A stretch of 64,000 nt of DNA, taken from positions 4,402,001 through 4,466,000 of the forward strand of contig NC_018748.1 in assembly GCF_000263195.1 (NCBI RefSeq), given 5' to 3'. The notes under the pieces were generated by a model, which did not search any database, was not told the origin of the DNA, and saw only the letters and a list, made by a program, of their open reading frames with translations. This stretch comes from Emticicia oligotrophica DSM 17448 (GTDB lineage Bacteria; Bacteroidota; Bacteroidia; Cytophagales; Spirosomataceae). Shown here piece by piece: positions 34,361 through 55,167 of this stretch; the stretch's first letter is position 1; every line of letters starts with the position of its first letter. Position numbers and translations under genes: made by a program.

Positions 34361-36829
34361 TTATTTTCCAACAGAAATCATATTCGCAAATAATCTATAG
34401 GCTCCAGGGACACCAGCAGGTAATTCTCTGAAAAATGCTAATGCTGTAAATACAAAATTACCCTTGCCATATTTCGCATAAAGTACACTTCCTTCTTGTT
34501 CTGTTTCGTTGGCGTCTTTGATAGAAAAGATTGTTTCGTATTGGTCGCTCCATTTATCTGAAAAATATAAACCACGTTCTTGAATCCATCCATCAAAATC
34601 TTTTTCAGTGATTTTATTTGGCGTATTTAATAATGGATGAGTTGGCTTCAATACTTTCATTTCGGCTTTTTCATCAGTTACGCGTCCACGGCCAATAGCA
34701 AATGGATATGGACCAATTTCTTTTACTTTTGAAACTCCATAAAAAGCATTTGTTTGATATTGAGTTACCACATTGCCCCCATTCTTTACATAATCCATTA
34801 ATTTATCTTGGAAAAACTTCAAATGTTCTTCAGTATTATAGGCTCTAACACCAACAATAATTGCATCAAATTGACTTAAATCTTTGGCAAGTTCGGTAGG
34901 CGTGAGCATAGTAACTTGATAGCCAATTTGTTGAAGAGCTGCCGGAACTTCATCACCTGCACCAGCAATATATCCTATTTGGTTTCCTCTTTTTTGTAAA
35001 TCAATTCGAAGTGCTTTGGCTTCTGCAAATGGGAATAAGGTAAGCGTTGGAATGTGTTTGTACTCAACAGTAGCAATTCCTCGGTCATATACGCCATTAT
35101 TTGTTTTGGCAATTGCTTTTAAGGTAATTTCAGAAGCAGTATTTGATGGATATACTTTAAATGAAACTTTTTTCTCTTCATATTTATCTTTTAAATCAAA
35201 ATTGATTGAAGCTGGCTCGATTCTCCAATCTTTAGGTACTTCTAAAGTCAAACTGCCGCTAACTCCTTTTTTTCCAGCTTTTAAGGTAACTACAACGTCT
35301 TTAGGGCTATTATCACCAAATGCATAGACTTTTTCTGCAATTGTGGCTGTAACTTCTGGTCTGACTTCGAAATAGCGATAAATTTCTCCATCAGAAGGCT
35401 CTACGTATTTATAGGATAGGGGTGTCGTAAAAGTAAATGCTTTACCTTCAATAGAGAATGTATATTCACAGGTCAAATCGGCTGGCTTCATTGGAAGACC
35501 TCGTAAAACTTGGTCTGTAACTTTATAAAAACCATTTTCTTTTCTTTCTACTAACCAGTAAGGTTGAGTTATTGGTGTATTTGCAGGAATTTTTAATTCA
35601 TAAGCGATATTTAAAGCATCGTTATAAACTAATTTTTTATTAATTGTGGTGTCTTGATTTGTACCTTTAAATACAAGTTTTTCCAAAGTAATATTCGAAT
35701 TACTTCTACTTACTACATTGACATTAACTTTAATTTTATCATTTGGAGAAACAGAATAATCAGTTGGATTGGCTTCAAACCAAAGTCCAGCACATGCAAG
35801 TATTAATTCTTGAACTTCTTTCTTTTTGTAATTTGTCCATACATTTTCTTCAAGTGCTGAAATAGCATTGAATACTTCAATTAATTTAGGAATTGAAGTA
35901 GATGGATTCTGTGGTTTGAAATTATTATAAACTTCATTGATAAGCTTTTCAACTTTTTCGCCTCCTTTCATACGTTTCCATGAGAGGTCAATTCCTTCGA
36001 ATAAATCATTTTTTGCCTCTTCACCCGCTTTGTGCAGAGCATAATCTACACGTTGGTTTTTGGTTTTTGCCGAACCAAATCCTTGGCTTTTGTGCATACT
36101 ACGAGCTTCAGCTGCAATTTCAGAATAAGATTTTCCAAGTAGAGGATTGTAATCTCCTAGCTGTATTTTCACAAAACTTCCTTCTGGCTGATTATTTTGA
36201 AAATTTGGCGAAAATGAATTCCAAACTAATCTTTTCGCTTGCCAAGTTTTAACATATTTCAATTGTTCAGGAAATTTTGTTGGGTCAGCAGCAGCTTTAA
36301 ATGCTTCTTCAGAAAGAACTGCAGAAGCAGAATGGTGACCATGACCCGCACGTGAATCGGGTGGAAAACGATTAACAATTACATCCGGTTGGAAATTTCT
36401 AATTCTCCACACTAAGTCTGCCAAAACTTGCTCTTTTCCCCAAGTTGCTAAGGCTTCTTCGGTAGTTTTAGTAAAACCGAAATCATTGGCTCTTGTAAAA
36501 TATTGTTCACCCCCATCAACACTTCTAGCACCCAATAGCTCATGAGTTCTTAAAAGTCCAACGTATTCACCTTGTTCAGAACCAATGAGATTTTGTCCAC
36601 CATCACCTCGAGTCATAGCTATATATCCAGCACGGACCATTTTTTCTTTTGAAAGCCAAGTGATAAATAGTGTATTTTCATCATCTGGATGAGCTGCAAC
36701 GTATAGAACGTTTCCTACTACATTTAGACGTTTAATAGCTTGAAGAATTTCACCAGTATTCATTTGCTTGGTTTGAGCAAATGTTGATAGCGTAATGAGT
36801 GTTAGAAGAATAGCTGTTATTTTTTTCAT
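34361..36829 (-). CDS. Secreted PIG-L family deacetylase with large C-terminal region
   Basis: An 822-residue exported protein with signal peptide (TLSTFAQ). The first 250 residues are a LmbE/PIG-L zinc deacetylase: AHPDDE at 46-51, TRGDGGQNLIGSEQGE, RxxHELLGA and the zinc-binding GHGHHSAS. Members remove N-acetyl groups from sugars such as GlcNAc derivatives. The remaining 570 residues include strand-rich segments and a C-terminal region (DAIIVGVRAYNTEEHLKFFQDKLMDYVKNGGNVVTQYQT) resembling a ThuA/GATase-like Rossmann fold. The substrate is unknown. It is divergent from hppA. Confidence 0.86.
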   Translation of the reverse strand: MKKITAILLTLITLSTFAQTKQMNTGEILQAIKRLNVVGNVLYVAAHPDDENTLFITWLSKEKMVRAGYIAMTRGDGGQNLIGSEQGEYVGLLRTHELLGARSVDGGEQYFTRANDFGFTKTTEEALATWGKEQVLADLVWRIRNFQPDVIVNRFPPDSRAGHGHHSASAVLSEEAFKAAADPTKFPEQLKYVKTWQAKRLVWNSFSPNFQNNQPEGSFVKIQLGDYNPLLGKSYSEIAAEARSMHKSQGFGSAKTKNQRVDYALHKAGEEAKNDLFEGIDLSWKRMKGGEKVEKLINEVYNNFKPQNPSTSIPKLIEVFNAISALEENVWTNYKKKEVQELILACAGLWFEANPTDYSVSPNDKIKVNVNVVSRSNSNITLEKLVFKGTNQDTTINKKLVYNDALNIAYELKIPANTPITQPYWLVERKENGFYKVTDQVLRGLPMKPADLTCEYTFSIEGKAFTFTTPLSYKYVEPSDGEIYRYFEVRPEVTATIAEKVYAFGDNSPKDVVVTLKAGKKGVSGSLTLEVPKDWRIEPASINFDLKDKYEEKKVSFKVYPSNTASEITLKAIAKTNNGVYDRGIATVEYKHIPTLTLFPFAEAKALRIDLQKRGNQIGYIAGAGDEVPAALQQIGYQVTMLTPTELAKDLSQFDAIIVGVRAYNTEEHLKFFQDKLMDYVKNGGNVVTQYQTNAFYGVSKVKEIGPYPFAIGRGRVTDEKAEMKVLKPTHPLLNTPNKITEKDFDGWIQERGLYFSDKWSDQYETIFSIKDANETEQEGSVLYAKYGKGNFVFTALAFFRELPAGVPGAYRLFANMISVGK

Positions 36830-43736: not shown

Positions 43737-44654
43737 ATGACTCGAAAATTTCTAACAACGCTTTTGATTATTTTTTTAATTGCCTCATTATCAGTTTTTT
43801 ATTCGGTGATTAATAAAACTCCCTCTCCTTTAGTTTTGATGACTGATTTTGGGGTAAAAGATGGAGCAGTTGCAGCAATGAAGGGTGTAGCACTCAAATT
43901 AGCACCAAACTTAACTATACATGACCTTACCCATGAAATTCCAGCGTATAATGTTTGGGAAGGTGCATATCGTCTGCAACAAACCGCTCAATATTGGCCA
44001 TTGGGAACTGTGTTCGTGTGCGTGGTGGACCCAGGAGTGGGAACTGAACGAAAATCAATTATTTTGAAAACCAAGGCAAATCATTATTATGTAGGGCCAG
44101 ACAATGGTTTGTTTACTTTAGTTGCAGAAAGTGAAGGAATTGAAGAAATTAGAGAAATTTCGGCCGCCAATCGTTTACCTAATTCTCAAAATTCTTACAC
44201 TTTTTTTGGTAGAGATGTTTTTGCATTTGCTGGGGCAAAATTGGCGTCCAAAGGAATTTCGTTTGATGAGGTTGGCGTTCAAATACCCAATGACAAACTG
44301 ATAATGTTGGAATACCCTAAACCAAAATTTGAAAATGGTATAATTTCAGCGGGAATTCCAATTTTGGATATACAATATGGAAATGTTTGGACAAACATTG
44401 ATGTAAAAAACATCGAAAAATTGAATCTAAAAGTTGGTGATAGGATTTTGGTAAAGATTTTTAATGAAAATAATCTCGTGTATGAAGGTGATATGCCTTA
44501 TGCACATACATTTGGAGATGTCAAAGAAGGAGAGGTGCTGAGTTATATGAATAGTTTAATGAATCTTTCTTTTGGAATAAATATGGGCGATTTTTCTAAG
44601 AAATTTGGCGTAGGAAGCGGGAATAATTGGAAAGTTGAGATAAGAAAAAAATAA
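43737..44654 (+). CDS. Exported SAM-hydroxide adenosyltransferase (DUF62) family protein
   Basis: A 305-residue member of the family that includes SAM hydroxide adenosyltransferase, chlorinase and fluorinase. MTDFGVKDGAVAAMKG, HDLTHEIPAYNVWEGAY, VDPGVGTERKSI and GPDNGLF are all present. Two things are odd. It begins with an uncleaved-looking membrane anchor (residues 4-24), although SAM is cytosolic. And the triad seen in the archaeal hydrolase (Asp, Arg, His) reads D98, R105 and F157, because the usual FHGRD motif is FFGRD. Activity therefore may differ or be lost. It is divergent from leuS. Confidence 0.88.
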   Translation: MTRKFLTTLLIIFLIASLSVFYSVINKTPSPLVLMTDFGVKDGAVAAMKGVALKLAPNLTIHDLTHEIPAYNVWEGAYRLQQTAQYWPLGTVFVCVVDPGVGTERKSIILKTKANHYYVGPDNGLFTLVAESEGIEEIREISAANRLPNSQNSYTFFGRDVFAFAGAKLASKGISFDEVGVQIPNDKLIMLEYPKPKFENGIISAGIPILDIQYGNVWTNIDVKNIEKLNLKVGDRILVKIFNENNLVYEGDMPYAHTFGDVKEGEVLSYMNSLMNLSFGINMGDFSKKFGVGSGNNWKVEIRKK

Positions 44655-44664
44655 AGCAAAAAAG

Positions 44665-44697
44665 GAAGTCTTCGTTCTAAACGAAGACTTCTTTAAA
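44665..44697. terminator. Bidirectional terminator
   Basis: AAGTCTTCGTT (44666-44676) pairs with AACGAAGACTT (44680-44690) around a 3-base loop, with A- and T-rich flanks. It lies between the DUF62 gene and the convergent symporter gene. Confidence 0.88.
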
Positions 44698-44725
44698 ATT
44701 TAAAATTAGGGTTGAATATATTTTA

Positions 44726-46201
44726 TTACTTACTTTTGAAAAGTACTGTGCTCAAAAATCCAACTATAAAAATTGACATTGTACCAAAAACAATCGTTAG
44801 ATAATGATGCAAACTACTAGCATATTGTTTGTTTGAATCTTCTGTAAATACCAATGGAGAAATGCTCATGTATAGTATGATAATTATTCCTACTATTACC
44901 CCCCAAATGGCACCTTTTCTCTCAATTTTTTCTACAAATGCTCCCAAAAGGAAAAGACCAAGCATACCTCCACTAAATACTGAGGCTAATTTCCACCATG
45001 CATCCAAGGCACTTTTTACATTAATCATAGCAATTCCAATCGTTATTCCGATGATACCCAATATCAATGAAACGATGTAAAGTATTTTAATTGAAGACTT
45101 TTCAGTAAAAATTTTGTTAGAAGAAAATCTTTGAAAGTAATCGTATAAAATTACGGTTGCAGAACTATTGATACTCGTTGAAATAGTGCTCATCCCTGCT
45201 GCAAAAATAGAAGCAATGAGTATTCCAGTAAAACCCGAAGGAAGTTTATTGGCAATAAAAAATGGAAAAACCTTATCGCTTGCTGAACCAATTTCTGAAG
45301 GTAATTCTGTGGGAAATACTTCATAATATGCAAAAAGGGATGTACCAATTAAAAAGAAAATCAATGAAACTGGCAAATACATCATTCCACCCCAGAATGC
45401 CGATTTCTTAGCCTCTTTCTCCGAACTTGAAGCAATGTATCGTTGAACATAATTTTGGTCGATTCCAAAATTTTGTAAATTGATGAAAATTCCATAAATA
45501 AATACCACCCAAAAAGTTGATTCAGTTAGGCTTATATCAAAACTTCCTAAGCTAAACTTTTGATGTTCGATGGCTATTTTAAAGGTTTGGGCTGGACCTT
45601 CAGGCATAGCAAACCATAAGAAAAGTAAACACAAAACAGCACCCCCAATGAGTACGATACCTTGAATTGCATCTGTCCACATGACAGCTTCAATTCCACC
45701 CAATAATGAGTAAATGGTTACAGTCAGTCCAGTAATGATGATAATTGTTATGATATCCCAACCAAACATAGCATTTACGGGTAAGGCAAGTAAGTATAAA
45801 ATAGTACCAATACGCATGATTTGGGTAAGTAAATAGCACATCGAAACATATACTCGGGCCCATAATCCAAATTTAGTTTCTAAATATGCATAAGCAGAAG
45901 GACTATTTATTTTTCGATAAATCGGTACAAAATATTTGACAGCAATTACGGAGGCAATTGGCAGTGATAAGCTGAATACAAAAGCATTCCAATTTGAAGA
46001 AAAAGCCGTTGCAGGTAGTGCCAAAAAGCTAATGCTACTGACAAATGTTGCAAAAATCGACATTGTCACTACCCAACTTGGAAATTTACTATCACCGATA
46101 GTGAATTCTGAAACAGTTTTGTCTTTTTTGTAGAATGAACTACCGTATACGGTAATTCCACCCATATAAACAAAGAATACAATTAAATCAAGGAGTTTCA
46201 A
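44726..46201 (-). CDS. Sodium:solute symporter (SSS family)
   Basis: A 491-residue inner-membrane transporter with about 13 helices. The family signature region GGIEAVMWTDAIQGIVLIGG and the Na+-site region SIFAAGMSTISTSINSSATVI are visible. The reading frame begins with TTG (46201), since there is no ATG before the first membrane helix LLDLIVFFVYMGGITVYG and the preceding codons lack any start. It is the last gene of the five-gene unit, 32 bases after the aldolase gene. It is therefore the likely uptake step for the product released by the secreted proteins upstream. Confidence 0.9.
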   Translation of the reverse strand: MKLLDLIVFFVYMGGITVYGSSFYKKDKTVSEFTIGDSKFPSWVVTMSIFATFVSSISFLALPATAFSSNWNAFVFSLSLPIASVIAVKYFVPIYRKINSPSAYAYLETKFGLWARVYVSMCYLLTQIMRIGTILYLLALPVNAMFGWDIITIIIITGLTVTIYSLLGGIEAVMWTDAIQGIVLIGGAVLCLLFLWFAMPEGPAQTFKIAIEHQKFSLGSFDISLTESTFWVVFIYGIFINLQNFGIDQNYVQRYIASSSEKEAKKSAFWGGMMYLPVSLIFFLIGTSLFAYYEVFPTELPSEIGSASDKVFPFFIANKLPSGFTGILIASIFAAGMSTISTSINSSATVILYDYFQRFSSNKIFTEKSSIKILYIVSLILGIIGITIGIAMINVKSALDAWWKLASVFSGGMLGLFLLGAFVEKIERKGAIWGVIVGIIIILYMSISPLVFTEDSNKQYASSLHHYLTIVFGTMSIFIVGFLSTVLFKSK

Positions 46202-46233
46202 TTTTTTATAGGTTTAGGGTTGATAAATAAAAT

Positions 46234-47166
46234 TTATAGGATAGGTTTAATTTCATACATTTCACACAAAACTTTAAAAGAATCCATCAGTGCATTAAAT
46301 CTTATAAAATCTGCATTTGACGGTGTTTCAGTAGGAATTCTTGAATTTGTCTCAATTTTTAAGCCTCTTTTCTGTAAAAATAATTTAGCTGAATATGGAT
46401 AAAAAGTATGAGTGACTCTATCCATCATGGTAAGTAAAGCGTGAAGTTTATTTAACTTTTCTGTTCTACCATTTGCAAAATATTCTTGCAACAAATATGT
46501 ATAGGGTTCTGGATAAAAGTTGGCAGAAATTGGCGAAATACCTCTTCCACCAAAATCTAAAGAATCGAGAGCTGTTGGGGTATCAGCATTGTAAAATCCA
46601 AAATTTGAATTTTTTACGGCATATAGTTTTTTTTCAATCGAAACAGAATTACAACTGGTGTCTTTGTGGTAGATAAATCTGCCTGTAGAAGCCATCCATG
46701 CCAACATTGAGGTACTTAATAATCTTTTATAGGGAACTGGACATTCATAAACCCCCAAAGGCATATCGCCAGTTACATTCATAATTTCTTCAAGTCGAGT
46801 TTTTAATACATCCTCACTTTCATCTGGCATGACGAGCATACTCGTTATAATTATAACTGCTTGAATACCTGTATCGTAAATTTCTTTGATAAATTCTGCA
46901 TTTGATTTTCCTCCAAACTGAAAAGTTCCTGTGGCAACAACGGGTACTTTTCCTCCACTAAATTTTACTACGTTTTGAGTTAATTGTAGCCTTTCTGCAT
47001 TAGTTAGTTGATACATTTCACTTGAAAGACAATTAGCAAATAATCCATTTGAACCTGCTTCTACATAAAAGTTGGTAAGCGATTCTAAACCATTATAATC
47101 AATTTCATTGCTTTTGGTTAGAGGAGTAATCATGACAGGCCAAAGGCCTTTGGGTAATTGGTTCAT
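46234..47166 (-). CDS. DapA/NanA-family aldolase
   Basis: A 310-residue class I (Schiff-base) TIM-barrel aldolase. The family's tyrosine is Y140 (VYECPVPYKRLL) and the Schiff-base lysine is K168 (YHKDTSC). The substrate-carboxylate loop reads CLSSEMYQLT instead of the GTTGE/GSTGE of dihydrodipicolinate synthase and N-acetylneuraminate lyase, so it is neither canonical enzyme. The cluster contains no lysine genes, so cleavage of a 2-keto-3-deoxy sugar acid or sialic-acid-like compound is inferred. It is fourth in the unit, 28 bases after the YidR-like gene. Confidence 0.82.
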   Translation of the reverse strand: MNQLPKGLWPVMITPLTKSNEIDYNGLESLTNFYVEAGSNGLFANCLSSEMYQLTNAERLQLTQNVVKFSGGKVPVVATGTFQFGGKSNAEFIKEIYDTGIQAVIIITSMLVMPDESEDVLKTRLEEIMNVTGDMPLGVYECPVPYKRLLSTSMLAWMASTGRFIYHKDTSCNSVSIEKKLYAVKNSNFGFYNADTPTALDSLDFGGRGISPISANFYPEPYTYLLQEYFANGRTEKLNKLHALLTMMDRVTHTFYPYSAKLFLQKRGLKIETNSRIPTETPSNADFIRFNALMDSFKVLCEMYEIKPIL

Positions 47167-47194
47167 AAGAGGTTTAATAGGGGTTATGTTGAAT

Positions 47195-48550
47195 TTATTT
47201 TTCTAAATTAATTAGAAATACTTGTTTAGTGTTTTTGATTAACCTATTGAAAGCCAATGATTTAGCATCGTGTGATACAACCAAATTGGTGGGAGAGGGA
47301 ACGCTTGGTTTAGAAATCACTCTATAGCTGTCTTCGAAATTGCTAGGTCCCAGTTTTACTTGATTGATACTTCCTGCTTGAATATAGAAAATACTTTTTT
47401 CGATTGGATGCCATCTCAAACTTCCTTCTACATCAGTATTATGAAATGTGATTTGCTCCATTTTACCACCATTGGGAGATATGCAAAATATTTGTTTAAC
47501 ACCTTGATTATCTTTCGCAACAAAAGCCAAATATTCACCATCCGATGAGGCTCTAACAATACCAATACATCCTTTATATTTTTGTTTAGAAGTGAAGGTT
47601 AGTCGCCTTTGACTTGCTCCTTTGGGTGGCTGAGGAAGTTCTAATTCATTCCCTTCAAGTTTACCATAAATTCCTGCTTCTTCAATGTTTTCGGGTATAT
47701 CAACCACAAAAACTTCATCAATATTTTCACCGTTTTCCTTTACCGTTCCTATAAATCCACGAGCCATTTGTTGTTGGCCATTTGGTTTTTTGTAGCCATT
47801 TTTACCAATCCAGCTATCACCAGCAGCGTGACTAATTTCATCCGAACCATCTTTGGGGTTTGGAACTACTTTTACAACAAGGGCACTGAACCATTCACCC
47901 GAAAAATTTTCATTGCTTGGATTATTAATTTGTATTTTTTGCCCCTTTTTAGAAATACCAATAGTTCTTAAATTATACCTATTTCCAGTTTTATCTTCAA
48001 GATTCTTCATGATGGCATCATTGTAGGTAAATCCAATCCAATTGCCATCTCCACTGAATTCATGTCGGTGTGTTCCTCCTCTTAATGCTCCTTTTGTGTA
48101 GGGATATTCAATATTTCGTGCATCCACCCAAATCCCTTTGTTGTCGTTATCTTCATCAATCATATATCCTGTACGACGCCATTGTTGATATGGGTTCTCT
48201 TTAGTAACACCCTTTAAACCATGGATAAATACAATTTGGTTAGCTACTGGCGAATAACTTGCGGCACCCACACCTGGTCCCCAAAAATGATTATTGGGAA
48301 CTTGATAGACTACTTTCTTTTCACCAGTAAGCACATTTACTTTTTCAATCCTATTTGACTCCGCAATTCCACCATCATCGGTTCGAGTATCATAAACAAG
48401 CCATTGATTATCAGGTGAAAAATTATCATTGTTGTCTAAATCGTGGTGATACGTTAAGTCGTTGGTTAACTGAATTTCCTCAAAATATTGTGGCATTTGC
48501 TTATAACTACAAGTGAAAAATAAAATGATTATGGCTGAAATAATTTTCAT
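47195..48550 (-). CDS. Secreted TolB-type propeller protein (YidR/DUF3748-like)
   Basis: A 451-residue exported protein. Its N-terminal hydrophobic segment contains a cysteine (ISAIIILFFTCSY), possibly a lipobox. The propeller has NFSPDNQWLVYDTRTDDGGIAESNRIEKVNV, ASYSPVANQIVFIHGLKGV, GTHRHEFSGDGNWIGFTYNDAIM and RASSDGEYLAFVAKD. The THRHEFSGDG region resembles E. coli YidR as I recall it. That protein has no established function. It lies 6 bases from the toroid gene and 28 bases before the aldolase gene. A role in recognising or isomerising the liberated sugar in the periplasm is possible. Confidence 0.72.
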   Translation of the reverse strand: MKIISAIIILFFTCSYKQMPQYFEEIQLTNDLTYHHDLDNNDNFSPDNQWLVYDTRTDDGGIAESNRIEKVNVLTGEKKVVYQVPNNHFWGPGVGAASYSPVANQIVFIHGLKGVTKENPYQQWRRTGYMIDEDNDNKGIWVDARNIEYPYTKGALRGGTHRHEFSGDGNWIGFTYNDAIMKNLEDKTGNRYNLRTIGISKKGQKIQINNPSNENFSGEWFSALVVKVVPNPKDGSDEISHAAGDSWIGKNGYKKPNGQQQMARGFIGTVKENGENIDEVFVVDIPENIEEAGIYGKLEGNELELPQPPKGASQRRLTFTSKQKYKGCIGIVRASSDGEYLAFVAKDNQGVKQIFCISPNGGKMEQITFHNTDVEGSLRWHPIEKSIFYIQAGSINQVKLGPSNFEDSYRVISKPSVPSPTNLVVSHDAKSLAFNRLIKNTKQVFLINLEK

Positions 48551-48556
48551 CGAAAC

Positions 48557-50764
48557 TTATTTTTGTGGTGGACTAATGACTCCTAAATATCTTCCAAGCC
48601 AATAGGGTAGAAGCCAAATATCTCCTGCACTATGTTCTGAAGTACCATTTCCACGCATTCTATCTAAATTAAACATATTGGCATTATGCCTTTGAATTGG
48701 GCGTTCGTCTGGTGGTAGAACTTCTTTGATAGTTTGAGTTCTAAAGTTTTCTGGTAATTTTTCAATGTCTTTTCTATGACTATTAGAAATATTCCAGTCA
48801 ATTAAATCAAGTGGATGTTCACGAAGATACCAAGCCGCTTCATTCAAATCAAAACTTGAAGTACCCGTAAGTGCCGTAAAAATGTTCCAAAGTCCTTCTT
48901 TTTCAGGTCTTTCTGTCTGCCAATGGTCAATAATCGCTTTTTTATAATGTGCTTTTAGTGTATCATTGAACGCATATCGGTAAAGCCCCCAATAACCCAA
49001 AAAATACATTTCATCATCCGAATGATTCCACGCATCAGACATTTTCTTGCTATGTTCATCAGCATCTTCAGGAGCATAGCCAATTTCTTTCATGGGTCTC
49101 ATCAGATTTTCAAAATAGCCATGTTTCTTCATTAATTCAAAGGCTTTTTCCTTGTAAATGGTTTTTTTAGTAAAATGATAAGCTGTTTGTAGCATTGCGA
49201 CGATATTAGAAGAATTAAGTTTTCTATCACCAACATTTTTAGGGAATGAATTTACATAACTCGGATTCCACTTACCCCATGTGGTTGGTTTACCGTCATA
49301 ATCAATTAAGTAGAAATCATTTTTAATGATATGGCTCATTAAGGTATCAATGAGCTTAATGGAGCGTTTTCGAAGGGAATTATCGTTGATTAACTCTGCT
49401 ATGGCTCCATAAACAAAAATATGTCCAATGGCCTCGTCGCTACTTGTGGTAGATTTCCAGTCCCATTCTTTATCTTGGGCGTGTTGCCACCTTTCGGGGT
49501 CGGCTAATTGTTTGATGTAGCCACTTCTTTCAAAAGACCTTGAAGGAAATCCTGGAATGCCATTGATTGTAAACAATCGTTCCATTGCATCTAATGATTC
49601 TCTACAATTTTGTAATGCATCTTCCGATTTTGTAACTACATACCTAAAAACTTCAGCCCCCAAATACATAGAAGTCCAAAGTCCATCATTATCAGAATCT
49701 GCTAAGAAACCCGTTGATAAATCTCCCTTTGCCATTCCTTCAATCGAAGCATTGAAGCCATTTCTGATGTGTCGAGTTCTGACTTGTTTTTCATAGAAAT
49801 CAGCCTTCTCTGCTAAAGTCATTTTTTGGAAAAATATTTCAGCTAAACCAGATTTTGTAAGAATTAAAGCCGAATTGTTTTTCCCTTCCGAAATTTGAAT
49901 AATATCATTATTTGGAAGCCATCTTTCACCATTGTAGTAGTCAATTTTTTCATTTTGACTGATAGAAAAACAACCATTATTTGTGCCAATCCATAGTTTT
50001 TCTCCGATTGATTTAATTGTAGTAATATTAGTGGAAGGTAATTTGGTGACTTTTGAACCTAAAACTCTTTTGTGTAAATAATCAAATCGGTAAAATCCAT
50101 CATTTGTACCAATAATAATCAATTTTTTGCTTGGAATTAATTCAAAAGCAGTTAAATCTTCACCTTCAAAAACTTTTGTAGAATGATTTTTTTCAATTGA
50201 AAATGTATGTATGGAATGTTTGGTAAGTACCCAAAACAAATGATCACTAAATTTTATATCTGTGATTTCTTCATCTATTGAAGAGCTCCAAATAGTTTTA
50301 TTTTGATTGATTAATTCCAATTTTTTACCATCCGAAACCAGAAATTGAAAATCTGAGCCAGCAGAAAAGAGCTTTGTGTTTTTAAGTTGAAATTTACTCA
50401 TTAAACTTCCTGCCCACGCATTGCTAAAAATTGAGTTTTCCTCAAGAAAAACAAATTGATTTTGAAATAATCCGATGTCTAACAGATGTTTATGTTGAAT
50501 TGTACGATAGCTTTTATCTGCTTTTAATTTACCAGCTTTTAAAAATGCACCATCGACAGGAATCAACAAACCATTAGTAGATAGTACTTTAATATTCCCA
50601 TTCCTATCAGTGAAGACTTTTTTTAATTGAATCTTATCATTATCAGAATAATACTTGATACTGTAATCCTGCAAAAATGGTTTATCAAGATAAACAGGTT
50701 GTTTAGATTGTGAAAAAACAGTTAAACCAAGAAGATTGATTAGTATAAATAAAGTATATTTCAT
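48557..50764 (-). CDS. Secreted reg_prop propeller fused to an alpha/alpha-toroid domain
   Basis: A 735-residue exported protein with signal peptide (LLGLTVFSQS). The first 330 residues form short propeller blades of the two-component-regulator type (LKKVFTDRNGNIKVLSTNG, KLWIGTNNGCFSIS). The remaining 400 are helical, with hairpins typical of an alpha/alpha barrel glycosidase fold (GLWTSMYLGAEVFRYV, ATTSSDEAIGHIFVYGAIAEL, SSNIVAMLQTAYHF). Candidate acids are in FLADSDNDGLW and TTSSDEAIGH. No kinase domain follows. It overlaps the sialidase-like gene by 4 bases (ATGA). The toroid part is the probable catalytic part, but it belongs to no glycosidase family I can name. Confidence 0.75.
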   Translation of the reverse strand: MKYTLFILINLLGLTVFSQSKQPVYLDKPFLQDYSIKYYSDNDKIQLKKVFTDRNGNIKVLSTNGLLIPVDGAFLKAGKLKADKSYRTIQHKHLLDIGLFQNQFVFLEENSIFSNAWAGSLMSKFQLKNTKLFSAGSDFQFLVSDGKKLELINQNKTIWSSSIDEEITDIKFSDHLFWVLTKHSIHTFSIEKNHSTKVFEGEDLTAFELIPSKKLIIIGTNDGFYRFDYLHKRVLGSKVTKLPSTNITTIKSIGEKLWIGTNNGCFSISQNEKIDYYNGERWLPNNDIIQISEGKNNSALILTKSGLAEIFFQKMTLAEKADFYEKQVRTRHIRNGFNASIEGMAKGDLSTGFLADSDNDGLWTSMYLGAEVFRYVVTKSEDALQNCRESLDAMERLFTINGIPGFPSRSFERSGYIKQLADPERWQHAQDKEWDWKSTTSSDEAIGHIFVYGAIAELINDNSLRKRSIKLIDTLMSHIIKNDFYLIDYDGKPTTWGKWNPSYVNSFPKNVGDRKLNSSNIVAMLQTAYHFTKKTIYKEKAFELMKKHGYFENLMRPMKEIGYAPEDADEHSKKMSDAWNHSDDEMYFLGYWGLYRYAFNDTLKAHYKKAIIDHWQTERPEKEGLWNIFTALTGTSSFDLNEAAWYLREHPLDLIDWNISNSHRKDIEKLPENFRTQTIKEVLPPDERPIQRHNANMFNLDRMRGNGTSEHSAGDIWLLPYWLGRYLGVISPPQK

Positions 50765-51948
50765 GGTTCTAGTGGAATTAGTTTTGGGTCAACTATTACA
50801 TATTTAATTGATTTTTTGTCTTTTTCAAGATGATAGGAATAAGTTAAGTGTATAAGTCCATCTTCCGTTTGAATGAGACTTGGATAGGAAAAGCTCCCTT
50901 TATTTGGTTCTACATTTTCGAGTTTGGTCTTCCATTTCCAAGTTTTTCCTTCATCATCCGATAAAAAAAGGCTCAATCTGTATCTTCCATCATCAATATC
51001 ATTACCCAAAAATGCCCATCTTCCATCTTTTAGAACCAAAAGTTCAACACTAGCAGTGTTAGGAATTTTGGTCTTTGAGCTTGCTTTCCAAGTTTCACCT
51101 AAATCCGTTGATTCGCTTTCATGCACTCGAGACGGGTCATCGCCACTATCCCTCATCAAGGCATAAAGATTACCGTTCTTTTTTTGAATAACGGCGGGCT
51201 GGATAGGTCCTCTACCAACTAATGGTAAACTTGGATGCCAACTTGTGCCATCATCATCTGATATGGCCATTAATGACATATTAAATCCATCTGAATATAA
51301 GGGCAGAACAATTCTATTGTTTGGTAATAAAAGTGGTTTAATTCTCGTCATCCAGCCAATACTTCTTTTGGTGGGGTCATTACTTGCAATGTTAATTGAT
51401 TCATCATATTTTGGTGCGTAACCAGCCCATCCAGCAGTTGGAGGAGGTAATTCTTTAAGTCTTTTGTTTACCTCTTTAGCAAATTCATCATCGGGTTTTA
51501 AAAGAATATTATCTTGCCAAGACCAAACTGGTGGACCACTTTTTTGATAATCGGTAGAAGTTCTGAATCTTAAAATTGATTGTTCCCATTTATTAGCTTG
51601 TACCGCAATCCAAACTAAAAAGAGTTTCTTTTCATGGTTGAGAAATAAAACTGGGTTGCAATCGGGAATATTGGGGGTATCGGCCATTAAAAAAGGCTCA
51701 GACCATGTTTTTTTGCCTTTTTCGAGTCTTGCACCCATAATTTTTACATCGTCAGAAGTACGTTCACCACTTCCGTAGAACCAAACACATAGATAATCCC
51801 CATTAGGTAAATTTACCAAACTACTAGCGTGTGTATGTTTTTCTTGAATGGGAAAGATTAAACTTGCATGTAATATTGGAGAATTTTGTGCATAGATTTT
51901 GTCCAAAAACACATTAAAAATAAGCAAAAATAATATTTTTCTTTTCAT
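50761..51948 (-). CDS. Secreted BNR sialidase-like protein
   Basis: A 395-residue exported protein from the ATG at 51948 (signal ends near DKIYAQ). It has the six-blade BNR fold with three clear Asp-boxes (SDDDGTSW, STDLGETW, SDDEGKTW), and an RTSDDVKIMGARLEKG start. Members of this family are named exo-alpha-sialidase, but the arginine triad cannot be verified by eye, and several members act on other acidic sugars. It is first in the five-gene unit, with a 4-base overlap to the next gene, and divergent from the PqaA-like gene. The longer reading from 52017 adds no signal-like start. Confidence 0.82.
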   Translation of the reverse strand: MKRKILFLLIFNVFLDKIYAQNSPILHASLIFPIQEKHTHASSLVNLPNGDYLCVWFYGSGERTSDDVKIMGARLEKGKKTWSEPFLMADTPNIPDCNPVLFLNHEKKLFLVWIAVQANKWEQSILRFRTSTDYQKSGPPVWSWQDNILLKPDDEFAKEVNKRLKELPPPTAGWAGYAPKYDESINIASNDPTKRSIGWMTRIKPLLLPNNRIVLPLYSDGFNMSLMAISDDDGTSWHPSLPLVGRGPIQPAVIQKKNGNLYALMRDSGDDPSRVHESESTDLGETWKASSKTKIPNTASVELLVLKDGRWAFLGNDIDDGRYRLSLFLSDDEGKTWKWKTKLENVEPNKGSFSYPSLIQTEDGLIHLTYSYHLEKDKKSIKYVIVDPKLIPLEP

Positions 51949-52059
51949 GGAGGGAGTGAAGGTTGAATGCTTTTCAAATTTATTAGATTTTATTAAGTAT
52001 TTATTAAAAAAAATCAAGAATATTACAAAACATTATTCAACCTTCAATTTTAACTCAAC

Positions 52060-53409
52060 ATGAAAATTATTAGATTAAGTGTTATTGTATTGTTGGCTTT
52101 TTATGGTTTAAATTCATATGCTCAGAAAACCAAATTAACGCCCCAAAATGCTCTTGAAAATTATATAAAAAACGGAGACAAAAGTTTTGCTTGGGAATTG
52201 AAAGACTCAACAATTTTTGGGAATGTAGTTGCCTATCAGCTATTGCTTACCTCCCAAAAATGGCGTGAATATACTTGGCGACATCAATTAACCATTTTTG
52301 TGCCCAAAAACCGACAATTCAATGATGCACTGCTGTTTATCACTGGTGGTTCAAATAAAGATGAGCAACCTAATTGGACTAAATCAGATGGACTTTGGCC
52401 CTCGTTGGCTGGTGTTGCAGAGAAAAATAAAGCAACAGTTGCGTTGATTAGGCAAGTTCCTAATCAACCGCTTTATGGCAATTTAACTGAAGACGCTTTG
52501 ATTTCTTATACACTCCATCAATTTAAGCAAGATAAAGACTATTCTTGGCCGCTTTTGTTTCCCATGGTTAAATCAGCGGTAAGGGCAATGGATGCTGTGC
52601 AAGAGTTTACAATGCAAAGACAAAAATATGCTGTGAACAGTTTTGTAATTTCTGGAGCATCTAAACGTGGTTGGACTACTTGGCTTTCTTCTGCAATTGA
52701 TGATAAACGTGTTAAAGCAATAGCTCCAATGGTGATTGATATGCTCAATATGCCTGCAACGCTTAATTATCAGTATACAACTTATGGTGAATATAGCATT
52801 GAAATTGAAGATTATGTAAAATTAGGCATTCCCCAAGGAACTGATACTGAAGATGGTAAAATGATTACTGCGATGATAGACCCATTTTCGTATAGAAATA
52901 AAATGTCAGTTCCGAAGATGATTTTTGTTGGAACAAATGATGAATATTGGACGATTGATGCCATCAAACATTACATCAATGAGATTCCTGGACAAAATAT
53001 GATTCATTATGTGCCAAATGTTGGTCATAATTTAGGTGGAGGAAAACAAGCTTTTGAAACTTTGAGTGCATTTTTTGGTTTAACTGTGTTAAATCTACCT
53101 TATCCAGTAAACACTTGGAAAGTTGATTATAATAAAGTTAATACTGAACTTACGATTGATGCTAAAACTGAAAACCTAGTTGAAGCGACTCTTTGGCAAA
53201 CCACTTCTTCTGACCGCGATTTTCGAAATAATTTGTGGTTGAATAAAAATATTAAGTTGAAAGATTTACCGCAAATTAAAGTTTCTCTTCCGTACCCTAA
53301 AAAGGGTTATCAATCATTTTATATTGAAATGAAGTACAAAGACCCTAATGGTGGCACTTATAGTGTTTGTACAAGAACTTATGTGACCGATACCGAGAAA
53401 GTATTGTAA
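52060..53409 (+). CDS. PhoPQ-activated (PqaA)-type secreted alpha/beta hydrolase
   Basis: A 449-residue exported hydrolase with signal peptide (LLAFYGLNSYAQ). The nucleophile elbow is SGASKRGWTTW, followed by the family's VIDMLNMPATLNYQYTTYGEYSIEIEDYVKLGIPQ, the MIFVGTNDEYW acid region and the VGHNLGGG histidine. This matches the PhoPQ-activated pathogenicity-related family, whose natural substrate is unknown. It starts 111 bases from the divergent five-gene unit and probably shares its control region, suggesting an esterase role on the same substrate. Confidence 0.85.
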   Translation: MKIIRLSVIVLLAFYGLNSYAQKTKLTPQNALENYIKNGDKSFAWELKDSTIFGNVVAYQLLLTSQKWREYTWRHQLTIFVPKNRQFNDALLFITGGSNKDEQPNWTKSDGLWPSLAGVAEKNKATVALIRQVPNQPLYGNLTEDALISYTLHQFKQDKDYSWPLLFPMVKSAVRAMDAVQEFTMQRQKYAVNSFVISGASKRGWTTWLSSAIDDKRVKAIAPMVIDMLNMPATLNYQYTTYGEYSIEIEDYVKLGIPQGTDTEDGKMITAMIDPFSYRNKMSVPKMIFVGTNDEYWTIDAIKHYINEIPGQNMIHYVPNVGHNLGGGKQAFETLSAFFGLTVLNLPYPVNTWKVDYNKVNTELTIDAKTENLVEATLWQTTSSDRDFRNNLWLNKNIKLKDLPQIKVSLPYPKKGYQSFYIEMKYKDPNGGTYSVCTRTYVTDTEKVL

Positions 53410-53448
53410 AAAGTAAGCCCTGAGAGAATTTCTTTCAGGGCTTACTTT
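53410..53448. terminator. Bidirectional terminator
   Basis: AAAGTAAGCCCTGA (53410-53423) pairs perfectly with TCAGGGCTTACTTT (53435-53448) around an 11-base loop. It ends the PqaA-like gene on plus. On minus the hydratase stop codon lies at its edge. Confidence 0.9.
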
Positions 53449-54271
53449 ACTTATTCTTCCAAACTGGTTTTCTTTTCTCTTTAAATGCTAAAATTCCTTC
53501 TCGTGCATCTTCCGATTGCCTAATTTCTTGAAGTACGCTAAGCAAATATTGATGTTGCTCTACCTCTGAAAGGTTGTTTAATTGATTGATTGCTTCAAAA
53601 CCCTTTCTGATTGCAAATGGTGAATTTTCTAAAATGCTTTCTACTAATTGGTTAGCCTCGTTTTCAATATTTTCTTTTGAACATATGTGCGTAACAATTC
53701 CTAGGTTAAATGCTTCTTGGGCAGTATAGTTTTTCCCTAAAATTGCCATTTCCATTGCTTTTCTTTGAGGCATTATTTTTAATAAAGTTGCCATCACTTG
53801 CATTGGAAAAATCCCTCTTTTTACCTCAGGTAATCCAAACTGAGCATCTTCCACCGAAACAACAAAACTGCATCCTCCAATAAGTAAAAATCCGCCTGCA
53901 AATACACTTCCTTCAACTTGGGCGATACATGGTTTTTCAAGATACTTAAATGCATCTCCAATAGTAACTTCTTTGATTGGTTTTGGAAGCTTTAGATTTT
54001 CAATATCTAAAGAAGGATTCTGAAAAACATTCAAATCCATTCCAGCACAAAAAGCTGGTCCTTCTGCTTTCAATAATACACACCATACTTCAGAATGATA
54101 ATGAGCATAAGCTAAAGCATAGGCTAATTCTGTAAGCATAATGGGAGTGAAAGCATTTCTTTTCTCGGGTCTATTAAGTGTAATTGTGAAAAGATTACCT
54201 GATTTATTAACTTTTATAAGTTTAAATTCAACTTCCGAGAATTTTGATAAGTCTGATTCTTGAAAAAACAT
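53447..54271 (-). CDS. Enoyl-CoA hydratase/isomerase family protein
   Basis: A 274-residue crotonase-fold protein. The oxyanion segments are GPAFCAGMDL and EGSVFAGGFLLIGGCSFVVS, and FGLPEVKRGIFP carries the acid region. With HMG-CoA lyase directly upstream (1-base overlap, TAATG), it is a candidate methylglutaconyl-CoA hydratase of leucine breakdown. The CoA-binding residues appear intact. The N-terminus has about ten extra residues before the first strand, so the true start could be slightly later. Confidence 0.85.
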   Translation of the reverse strand: MFFQESDLSKFSEVEFKLIKVNKSGNLFTITLNRPEKRNAFTPIMLTELAYALAYAHYHSEVWCVLLKAEGPAFCAGMDLNVFQNPSLDIENLKLPKPIKEVTIGDAFKYLEKPCIAQVEGSVFAGGFLLIGGCSFVVSVEDAQFGLPEVKRGIFPMQVMATLLKIMPQRKAMEMAILGKNYTAQEAFNLGIVTHICSKENIENEANQLVESILENSPFAIRKGFEAINQLNNLSEVEQHQYLLSVLQEIRQSEDAREGILAFKEKRKPVWKNK

Positions 54272-55167
54272 TAGTCTATAAGCTCTTGAAAAGCTGTTTT
54301 TAATTGTATGATTTTCTCTTCAACTCCGTTAATCGTACCTTCTTTTTCTTGCTTGAAAAGCAACAAATTTTCTGTATCCATATTTCCGACTAATTCATCT
54401 GCGGCCATTGGACACCCTCCATATCCTAATATAGCACCATCAAATCTTCTGCAACCACCTTGATAAGCCGCATTAATTTTTTCGTACCAAGTTTGAGGAG
54501 TAGTATGTAAATGGGCACCAAATTCTAAATTTGGGTAACTTGGAATTAAATGATTGAACAAATAATTGATTGTTTCGGGAGTACCAACGCCTACGGTATC
54601 AGACAAAGAAAATATTTTTATGTCTAATTTTTGTAGTTCATCTACCCATTGAATAGCAATTTCAGCATTCCATTCATCACCATAAGGATTGCCAAAGCCC
54701 ATTGAAATATAGATAACTAATTCTTTATTAGCTTTTTCTGTAATTTCTTGAATTCCTTTTACCCTTTCCAATGATTCAACAATACTTGCATTTGTATTTC
54801 TTAATTGAAAAGTTTCTGATATTGAAAATGGATAACCCAAATATGTAATTTCTTCAAATGCTGCTGCTTCCGTAGCTCCACGTTCATTAGCAATGATTGC
54901 TAATAACTTTGAGCTTGAATGATTTAATTTCAATTTTCCTAATACTTGCTTTGTATCGGCCATTTGTGGAATGGCTTTGGGCGAGACAAAACTTCCAAAA
55001 TCTATGGTACTAAAAAGCTGACTTTCTAGTAAAAGATTGAGGTATTTAGCTTTTTTTTCAGTTGAAATTATATCATGAAGCCCTTGAATGGCATCACGTG
55101 GACATTCAATTAATTGAATATTTTTATTGTCCCACAGCGTTTTTATTGAATCATTAACTCTGTTCAA
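54271..55167 (-). CDS. Hydroxymethylglutaryl-CoA lyase
   Basis: A 298-residue TIM-barrel lyase splitting HMG-CoA into acetoacetate and acetyl-CoA. Metal and catalytic segments are ECPRDAIQG, GAHLHTTP and the catalytic cysteine loop GYGGCPMA. ECPRDAIQG replaces the textbook VGPRDGLQ. The frame has no ATG before the conserved N-terminus, and the start is the TTG at 55167. The next gene overlaps by one base. The palindrome-rich spacer 55168-55460 lies upstream, separating it from the acyl-CoA dehydrogenase. Confidence 0.9.
   Translation of the reverse strand: MNRVNDSIKTLWDNKNIQLIECPRDAIQGLHDIISTEKKAKYLNLLLESQLFSTIDFGSFVSPKAIPQMADTKQVLGKLKLNHSSSKLLAIIANERGATEAAAFEEITYLGYPFSISETFQLRNTNASIVESLERVKGIQEITEKANKELVIYISMGFGNPYGDEWNAEIAIQWVDELQKLDIKIFSLSDTVGVGTPETINYLFNHLIPSYPNLEFGAHLHTTPQTWYEKINAAYQGGCRRFDGAILGYGGCPMAADELVGNMDTENLLLFKQEKEGTINGVEEKIIQLKTAFQELID

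What the first reader, a model, noticed from the sequence alone, without database searches (positions are those of the whole stretch)
44726..53409. Unassigned secreted-sugar catabolic system: sialidase-like, toroid, YidR-like, aldolase, symporter, plus PqaA-like hydrolase
Five minus-strand genes with gaps of 6-32 bases and one 4-base overlap, and a divergent secreted hydrolase, form a self-contained path. Exported BNR and propeller/toroid proteins release a sugar, an SSS symporter imports it, and a DapA/NanA-type aldolase splits it. The aldolase has an atypical carboxylate loop (CLSSE), and none of the sialate genes NanE, NanK or NagB are present. The substrate is therefore probably not free Neu5Ac in the usual route. 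There is no SusC/SusD pair, unlike typical polysaccharide loci. It is the best candidate here for an undescribed pathway.
Basis: inference. Interest (0 to 1): 0.75.

Follow-up and report, generated by a model that had tools for sequence, protein, structure and literature searches.

The report
Sugar-acid scavenging gene cluster
A bacterial gene cluster that probably cuts an acidic sugar off some outside polymer, imports it and splits it into pyruvate plus a smaller sugar; parts of the kit recur together in relatives, with some parts exchanged, but its sugar is unknown and probably not ordinary sialic acid.

Summary
In detail: five tightly spaced minus-strand genes plus a divergent hydrolase; the genus is Emticicia by inference. 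The set is not random: in 11 of 11 genus genomes a DHDPS-family lyase lies beside, or about 4 kb from, the YidR-like gene, in two versions (7 window-type, 4 divergent with its own symporter). Elsewhere in Bacteroidota the symporter has such a lyase within 6 kb in 18 of 22 loci, a BNR gene in 14, neither in 1. Its nearest solved relative is the sialate carrier SiaT; the carboxylate-binding Arg is kept in 31 of 31 rows (0 of 7 paralogs of the host), SiaT's glycerol-tail Gln in none. The lyase fails the DapA and NanA cut-offs (a separate DapA exists), and no NanE passes. So: a module for a carboxylated sugar, probably not Neu5Ac, perhaps a 3-deoxy-2-ulosonate such as Kdo or Dha; no substrate is shown. 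Against one self-contained path: 4 of 66 well-flanked TOR loci have this lyase near, and 6 of 7 window-type genomes lack the window's symporter. TOR is an unclassified propeller plus helical-domain protein. A new variant of the sialate-scavenging kind.

The parts
44726..46201 (-). SSS Na+/solute symporter, SiaT-like; S55, S58 and R130 stand at SiaT's Ser60, Thr63 and Arg135, L78 at its Gln82
46234..47166 (-). DHDPS/NAL-superfamily lyase (ALD); Schiff-base Lys168 and Tyr140 kept, carboxylate loop CLSSE instead of GTTGE
47195..48550 (-). DUF3748 (YidR-like) protein; lipobox-like N-terminus in relatives (read by eye)
48557..50764 (-). TOR: protein with signal-peptide-like start, N-terminal beta-propeller plus C-terminal helical (toroid-like) domain, no Pfam or NCBIfam family
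50761..52017 (-). BNR_2 protein with sialidase fold and signal-peptide-like start (likely true start 51948)
52060..53409 (+). PhoPQ-activated-pathogenicity-related (PF10142) hydrolase with signal-peptide-like start, divergent
53410..53448 (+). terminator-like hairpin after PQA (not above chance number in the region)
44665..44691 (-). terminator-like hairpin after SSS (not above chance number in the region)

Best explanation
The cluster is a scavenging module for a carboxylated sugar, probably not Neu5Ac. Exported proteins (the sialidase-fold BNR, the propeller/toroid TOR, the lipoprotein-like YIDR and the PqaA-like hydrolase) open an outside glycan and free the sugar acid; the Na+ symporter takes it up by gripping its carboxylate; the class I lyase splits it to pyruvate plus an aldose. 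My preferred substrate class is a 3-deoxy-2-ulosonic acid (Kdo- or Dha-like). Shown by computation: gene order, families, folds, recurrent linkage, residue conservation. Inferred: export, catalysis, reaction order, substrate. No activity is shown.
For: Linkage: in the genus, 11 of 11 genomes have exactly one lyase of this family at E<=1e-40; in 7 it adjoins YIDR, in the other 4 a divergent lyase (43-47% identity) plus its own symporter lies about 4 kb from BNR-TOR-YIDR. Of 22 symporter loci found by symporter searches (14 of the 62 other family genomes with a hit; all 8 others), 18 have a DHDPS-family lyase within 6 kb, 14 a BNR gene, 1 (L151) neither. BNR, DHDPS-lyase and SSS stand side by side in L154, L156, L157, L158, L161, L186, L187. 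Symporter: best solved hit SiaT 5nv9, E 3.2e-76. SiaT's carboxylate residues Ser60, Thr63, Arg135 (PMC5931594, passages) align to S, S/T, R in 31 of 31 rows (29 distinct loci), while Gln82 (glycerol tail) is L, I or F in all. The Arg is the telling one: 0 of 7 other SSS proteins of the same genome have it. Lyase: Lys and Tyr invariant, own loop. BNR: sialidase fold, with Tyr and two Args aligned to GH33 and invariant in 28 of 28. Downstream hint: in L183-L185 the lyase-symporter-BNR row is followed by a pentulose kinase (690.8 bits, cut-off 408.7) and FucI (1034 bits, cut-off 850), scored in L183, with homologs in L184 and L185; FucI also takes D-arabinose (recalled), the aldose that Kdo cleavage would give.
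Against: Six of the 7 window-type genus genomes have no symporter match at E<=1e-90, so the window's carrier is not obligatory there; that cut also missed the divergent carrier of G650, so a divergent one cannot be excluded. TOR's wider family rarely has this lyase near (4 of 66). Loss of Gln82 and Gly at SiaT's Phe243 are shared by the host's 7 other SSS proteins, and Ser60 and Ser/Thr63 stand in 5 and 4 of these 7, so these positions only say 'not SiaT-like in the tail pocket', not which acid. FucI and pentulose kinase are linked in one genus only, and in one of those genomes fuconate-type genes follow about 5 kb on (L225), so L-fucose explains them as well. In 4 genomes the pair sits beside GH20, HGSNAT-family and MFS genes, which hint at an amino sugar. 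BNR lacks the aligned GH33 Glu. The host has no linked FucI or kinase. Kdo or Dha has no direct evidence.
Confidence: 0.48

Rival explanations
1. Hexuronate route: BNR/TOR/YIDR release a uronate or unsaturated uronate, the symporter carries it, and the lyase acts as a 2-keto-3-deoxygluconate-type aldolase.
For: TOR loci in other genomes carry UxuA (18 of 66) and a PfkB-HAD fusion (22 of 66) within 8 kb; the divergent lyase-symporter pair sits in loci with GH28, GH95 and GH2 (L101). The symporter's Arg would fit any sugar acid.
Against: In the 80 loci, none with the lyase cluster has the UxuA cluster. KdgD scores 32.1 against 373.95 and the archaeal KDG-aldolase model is not matched at E<=0.001. 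The nearest solved carrier is a sialate one, though no uronate carrier appears in that list.
Confidence: 0.2
2. Two neighbouring but functionally separate modules: a glycan-attack set (BNR-TOR-YIDR-PQA) and an unrelated lyase(-symporter) unit.
For: 4 of 66 TOR loci have the lyase within 8 kb; TOR is in the fetched stretch of only 6 of 30 symporter loci, 5 of them genus members; the window's symporter is missing in 6 of 7 window-type genomes.
Against: Linkage kept in 11 of 11 genus genomes although the lyase was exchanged; TOR, DHDPS-lyase, BNR and SSS again together in L107, and PQA, TOR and then SSS-ALD about 14-15 kb on in G162; BNR-family genes lie within 6 kb of the symporter in 14 of 22 loci.
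Confidence: 0.2
3. Ordinary N-acetylneuraminate use with a divergent NanA, the epimerase elsewhere.
For: SiaT-like symporter with the carboxylate Arg, sialidase-fold protein, one AGE-family gene in the genome, GH20 and ROK genes beside the pair in relatives.
Against: NanA model 28.6 bits against 281; loop CLSSE instead of the NAL carboxylate block (NGSSGE in PMC4016182, passages); SiaT's Gln82 absent in 31 of 31 (also absent in 7 of 7 paralogs); no NanE over cut-off; the AGE gene is unlinked.
Confidence: 0.1
4. The lyase is the genome's dihydrodipicolinate synthase.
For: Pfam DHDPS family; DapA proteins are its nearest solved relatives.
Against: 79.9 bits against a cut-off of 206.15, while L003 of the same genome scores 293.8.
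Confidence: 0.02

Closest known systems
Bacterial sialate scavenging: GH33 sialidase, SiaT (SSS), NanA lyase
   Same: Same three roles: sialidase-fold protein with a signal-peptide-like start, SiaT-related Na+ symporter with the carboxylate Arg, class I pyruvate lyase of the DHDPS/NAL superfamily.
   Different: Lyase far below the NanA cut-off with a CLSSE loop; SiaT's Gln82 absent; BNR lacks the aligned Glu; no NanE over cut-off in the genome; extra TOR, YIDR and PQA genes.
Kdo and Dha release from plant rhamnogalacturonan II by gut Bacteroides (enzymology recalled; one search listed RG-II papers, none read)
   Same: Would need a ketoside hydrolase and a lyase for a 3-deoxy-ulosonate; the divergent lyase-symporter pair lies in loci with GH28, GH95 and GH2 (L101).
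   Different: GH143 and other RG-II-specific families were not tested; no such pectinase genes are among the scanned genes beside the window's cluster.
SusCD polysaccharide utilization loci
   Same: TOR relatives have SusC-like genes within 8 kb in 27 of 66 and SusD-like in 20 of 66 loci (labelled by eye).
   Different: No SusCD inside the window's cluster; a TonB receptor lies at 1759-3930, about 41 kb off.

Membership tests
GH33 exo-sialidase (BNR protein) | Six-bladed sialidase beta-propeller fold | tested here: met
   AF2 pLDDT 87.1; Foldseek best 5hx0 (unknown function), then many sialidases
GH33 exo-sialidase (BNR protein) | Catalytic Tyr and the second and third Arg of the carboxylate triad | tested here: met
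   Y355, R266, R322 of A3 align to Tyr/Arg positions of 4x47 and are invariant in 28 of 28; which residues are catalytic in GH33 is recalled
GH33 exo-sialidase (BNR protein) | Glu partner of the Tyr | tested here: not met
   aligned position is Pro (Gln next to it)
GH33 exo-sialidase (BNR protein) | First Arg (FRIP motif) and acid/base Asp | tested here: inconclusive
   N-terminal part not aligned to 4x47 by the profile; by eye HxHxSS stands in place of FRIP and a DDV motif is conserved
N-acetylneuraminate lyase (ALD) | Curated model score over cut-off | tested here: not met
   PRK04147 28.6 bits, cut-off 281
N-acetylneuraminate lyase (ALD) | Schiff-base Lys and catalytic Tyr | tested here: met
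   K168 and Y140 invariant in 14 of 14; motifs in PMC4016182 passages
N-acetylneuraminate lyase (ALD) | Carboxylate-binding block (NGSSGE in LaNAL) | tested here: not met
   CLSSE, invariant in 14 of 14; block
DapA dihydrodipicolinate synthase (ALD) | Curated model score over cut-off | tested here: not met
   79.9 against 206.15; L003 of the same genome 293.8
SiaT-type sialate symporter (SSS) | Carboxylate site Ser60/Thr63/Arg135 | tested here: met
   S, S/T, R in 31 of 31 rows; Arg absent in 7 of 7 paralogs, Ser60 kept in 5 of 7, Ser/Thr63 in 4 of 7
SiaT-type sialate symporter (SSS) | Gln82 (glycerol tail) and Phe243 | tested here: not met
   L/I/F and G in 31 of 31; also neither in 7 of 7 paralogs
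SusCD polysaccharide utilization locus | Adjacent SusC and SusD genes | tested here: not met
   none among the genes of 43737-55167 scanned; ORFs
Any enzyme family (TOR) | Catalytic activity | not testable with these tools
   no solved sequence relative of the C-terminal domain: best E 0.9

The most novel reading that the evidence does not exclude
An undescribed catabolic route for Kdo (or Dha) in Bacteroidota: a sialidase-fold ketoside hydrolase with an altered active site, a SiaT-like symporter for a shorter ulosonate, and three interchangeable pyruvate lyases, in some genomes feeding D-arabinose to a FucI-type isomerase and a pentulose kinase; with TOR as a new carbohydrate-active enzyme family (propeller plus toroid).
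Probability: 0.2. Interest if true: 0.75.

Novelty: new variant of a known kind. Interest (0 to 1): 0.5.

Why it matters
If the substrate is a 3-deoxy-ulosonate such as Kdo or Dha, this would explain how environmental Bacteroidota consume parts of lipopolysaccharide, algal or plant-wall glycans whose fate is poorly known, and would give functions to DUF3748/YidR, PF10142 and the unclassified TOR family. Exchange of three lyase types beside one conserved carrier makes the pathway directly testable with a few small proteins.

Tried and rejected
DapA reading: rejected. NanA/Neu5Ac reading: disfavoured. Genome-wide test for the Kdo sequel in the host: one FucI-family gene over the Pfam cut-off and no kinase over the TIGR01315 cut-off, none near the cluster (coordinates), so no support from the host itself. 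Literature, listings only: RG-II with Kdo/Dha/GH33, YidR/DUF3748, Kdo hydrolase/GH33, Kdo aldolase and catabolism, DHDPS-BNR-symporter-FucI, GH143 (a narrow query with no result), ulosonic-sialidase-aldolase-symporter, Emticicia/Runella: I saw no description of this module in the rows listed; only open-licence papers are held. Passages were read in PMC5931594, PMC8857213 (AraD-like aldolase, no DHDPS), PMC4016182 and PMC5583593. Foldseek on the whole TOR model returned rows dominated by propeller proteins, so the helical domain stayed unclassified; its profile found nothing significant and did not match a GH127 protein. The phylum search with the GTTGE-type lyase hit 11 of 395 genomes: 7 carry the lyase-symporter pair, 4 are one other genus; stretches of 3 of these 4 showed no module. 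For the 22-locus count I left out the window and the 7 loci reached through the lyase; all 30 together give 26 with lyase, 15 with BNR, 1 with neither.
Full report
Host and anatomy. The window lies in a 5.22 Mb assembly. Its genus set of 11 genomes includes G648, whose contig C2 (771,865 bases) has the length and genes of Emticicia aquatilis NZ_BMKK01000002, so the genus is Emticicia by inference. Pfam gives SSF, DHDPS, DUF3748, BNR_2 and PhoPQ_related; TOR matches no Pfam or NCBIfam model at E<=0.001. BNR, TOR and PQA begin with signal-peptide-like stretches and YIDR relatives with a lipobox-like one (read by eye). Promoter-like sites (31 against 36.7 expected) and terminator-like sites (5 against 5.3) are not above chance, so the two flanking hairpins are suggestive only.

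Conservation in the genus. All 11 genomes hold exactly one lyase of this family at E<=1e-40: 7 of the window type (own, and six at 73-77% identity) and 4 divergent (43-47%). In a class sample only 6 of 295 genomes have one. Neighbourhoods of all 11 were read. Window type: YIDR adjoins the lyase in 7 of 7, TOR is present in 6 of 7 (absent in L164), BNR in 6 of 7 and PQA in 5 of 7 (the contig of L238 ends before both; PQA is absent in L164). The symporter follows the lyase only in the window; the other six genomes have no match at E<=1e-90, a cut that also misses the divergent symporter of G650. Divergent type: lyase plus its own symporter plus an AraC gene, with the lyase about 4 kb from YIDR-TOR-BNR, in 4 of 4 (L166, L167, L168, L240). 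The locus thus keeps a lyase although its type was exchanged; this is the best single argument for a shared pathway.

TOR across genomes. A phylum sample gave 9 of 395 genomes (own included) at E<=1e-5, two of them with short matches inside the propeller. In the GTDB set 550 stretches encode relatives; the best 80 loci were kept. In these 80, tblastn at E<=1e-8 finds BNR in 49, YIDR in 29, PQA in 13, ALD in 6, SSS in 3. Of 66 loci with at least 4 kb on both sides, protein clusters within 8 kb are: BNR 41, a TOR paralog 37, YdjC-like 27, SusC-like 27, YIDR 26, PfkB-HAD 22, SusD-like 20, UxuA 18, ALD 4, PQA 3 (families, SusC and SusD labelled by eye). The paralog (Reg_prop, about 750 aa) is homologous to TOR over nearly its whole length (hhalign 100%, E 7.9e-78). 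Tandem TOR copies occur in 17 of 80 loci. So TOR-BNR is a widespread core in Spirosomaceae and beyond; this lyase is a local addition, with echoes in G171 (L107: SusC-like, SusD-like, TOR, a phosphoesterase, DHDPS-lyase, BNR, SSS, BNR) and G162 (PQA and TOR with an HGSNAT-family gene, then SSS-ALD about 14-15 kb on).

TOR structure. AlphaFold2 model with pLDDT 89.5: beta-strands of a propeller up to about residue 315, then a helical domain consistent with a toroid. Foldseek rows are dominated by propeller proteins; the C-terminal profile (36 sequences, 74% mean column identity, many invariant Trp, Asp, Glu and His) has no significant solved relative.

Symporter. Two searches brought loci because of the symporter: family (63 of 222 genomes at E<=1e-90, own included; neighbourhoods read for 14 of the 62 others) and phylum (9 of 395 at E<=1e-115, own included; all 8 others read). 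In these 22 loci a DHDPS-family lyase is within 6 kb in 18, a BNR gene in 14, neither in 1 (L151). Three lyase groups share the carrier: the window's CLSSE group (L149, L150, L152, L153, and L182 at 48%), its divergent CLSSE cousin (L161, L162 and others) and a third group (L154, L156-L158, L183-L188, L107; GTTGE loop seen in L154, L156-L158 and L183). In SiaT the carboxylate is held by Ser60, Thr63 and Arg135, and Gln82 and Thr58 bind the glycerol tail; Ser60Ala, Thr63Ala, Gln82Asp and Arg135Glu abolish transport (PMC5931594, passages). In the 31-row alignment (29 distinct loci) Ser, Ser/Thr and Arg are kept throughout, Gln82 is L, I or F and Phe243 is G throughout. Control: of the host's 7 other SSS proteins none has the Arg, but none has Gln82 or Phe243 either, 5 keep Ser60 and 4 keep Ser/Thr at 63. 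So the Arg is the specific feature: it predicts a carboxylated substrate. The missing Gln says that the tail pocket is not SiaT's, which argues against, but does not exclude, Neu5Ac.

Lyase. The Schiff-base Lys168, Tyr140, the ANCLSSEM loop and the Y-E-C-P-x-P-Y-K-R stretch are invariant in 14 of 14 sequences covering both CLSSE groups. Curated cut-offs are not met for DapA and NanA. The host has two other family members: DapA (L003) and one beside a hydroxyproline-epimerase-like gene (L002, read by eye).

BNR. The model (pLDDT 87.1) matches 5hx0, a Dyadobacter protein of unknown function, and then GH33 sialidases. Against the anhydrosialidase 4x47 the Tyr and two Args align, the Glu does not. 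The smaller BNR proteins of L154-L161 share the signature H-A-S, I-Q-P, S-Y-P.

What the neighbours hint at. (a) L183-L185: lyase-SSS-BNR followed by a pentulose kinase and FucI, which would suit D-arabinose from Kdo; but in G119, about 5 kb further, an enolase-family gene, an amidohydrolase, an SDR-like gene and an MFS gene stand together and look like L-fucose use. (b) The divergent pair stands in a pectinase-type locus: GH2, GH95, GH28 in L101; in G138 a GH78-type rhamnosidase lies about 25 kb from the lyase (L231), and in G166 a BNR_2 gene about 19 kb away (L233). (c) The window-type pair sits beside HGSNAT-family, GH20 and MFS genes in 4 genomes (L149, L150, L152, L153; ROK in 3 of them), and TOR-BNR near a GH20-ROK-MFS block in L242. 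(a) and (b) can be read as plant rhamnogalacturonan II, which holds Kdo and Dha (recalled); (c) can be read as an amino-sugar glycan. They do not agree on one substrate, hence the modest confidence.

Verdict. It is a sugar-acid scavenging module that I did not find described in the listings searched, built like sialate scavenging but failing sialate-specific tests made here. The substrate, the enzyme role of TOR and whether all six genes serve one path remain open.

Noticed in passing
L149, L150, L152, L153 (lyase-symporter side) and L242 (TOR-BNR side): A GH20 and MFS block (with ROK in L150, L152, L153 and L242; an HGSNAT-family gene in all five, 33% identity in L242) neighbours either half of the system in different genomes.
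   Followed up: partly
L199 (G000:C5:281000-300000): FucI-like isomerase, transketolase-like genes, sugar ABC transporter and FGGY-like kinase in one run in the host; looks like a pentose-type pathway (by eye).
   Followed up: no
window 43737-44654: SAM hydroxide adenosyltransferase-family protein (fluorinase model matched far below its cut-off) beside leuS; this pair flanks the cluster also in L015, L016, L165, L238 and L239.
   Followed up: no
TOR loci such as L035:6522-8780: A Reg_prop protein, near full-length paralog of TOR, is encoded within 8 kb of TOR in 37 of 66 loci; tandem TOR copies in 17 of 80.
   Followed up: partly
window 34361-36829: 822-aa protein with an N-terminal PIG-L (GlcNAc de-N-acetylase) domain and a long remainder without a Pfam match at E<=1e-5.
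   Followed up: no
L186, L187: A PqaA-like gene (28-29% identity) lies about 1-2 kb from the BNR-lyase-SSS row in another family of the order, so PF10142-like genes recur with the module.
   Followed up: partly
L164: One genus member has BNR-YIDR-ALD without TOR between them, so TOR may be dispensable there.
   Followed up: no
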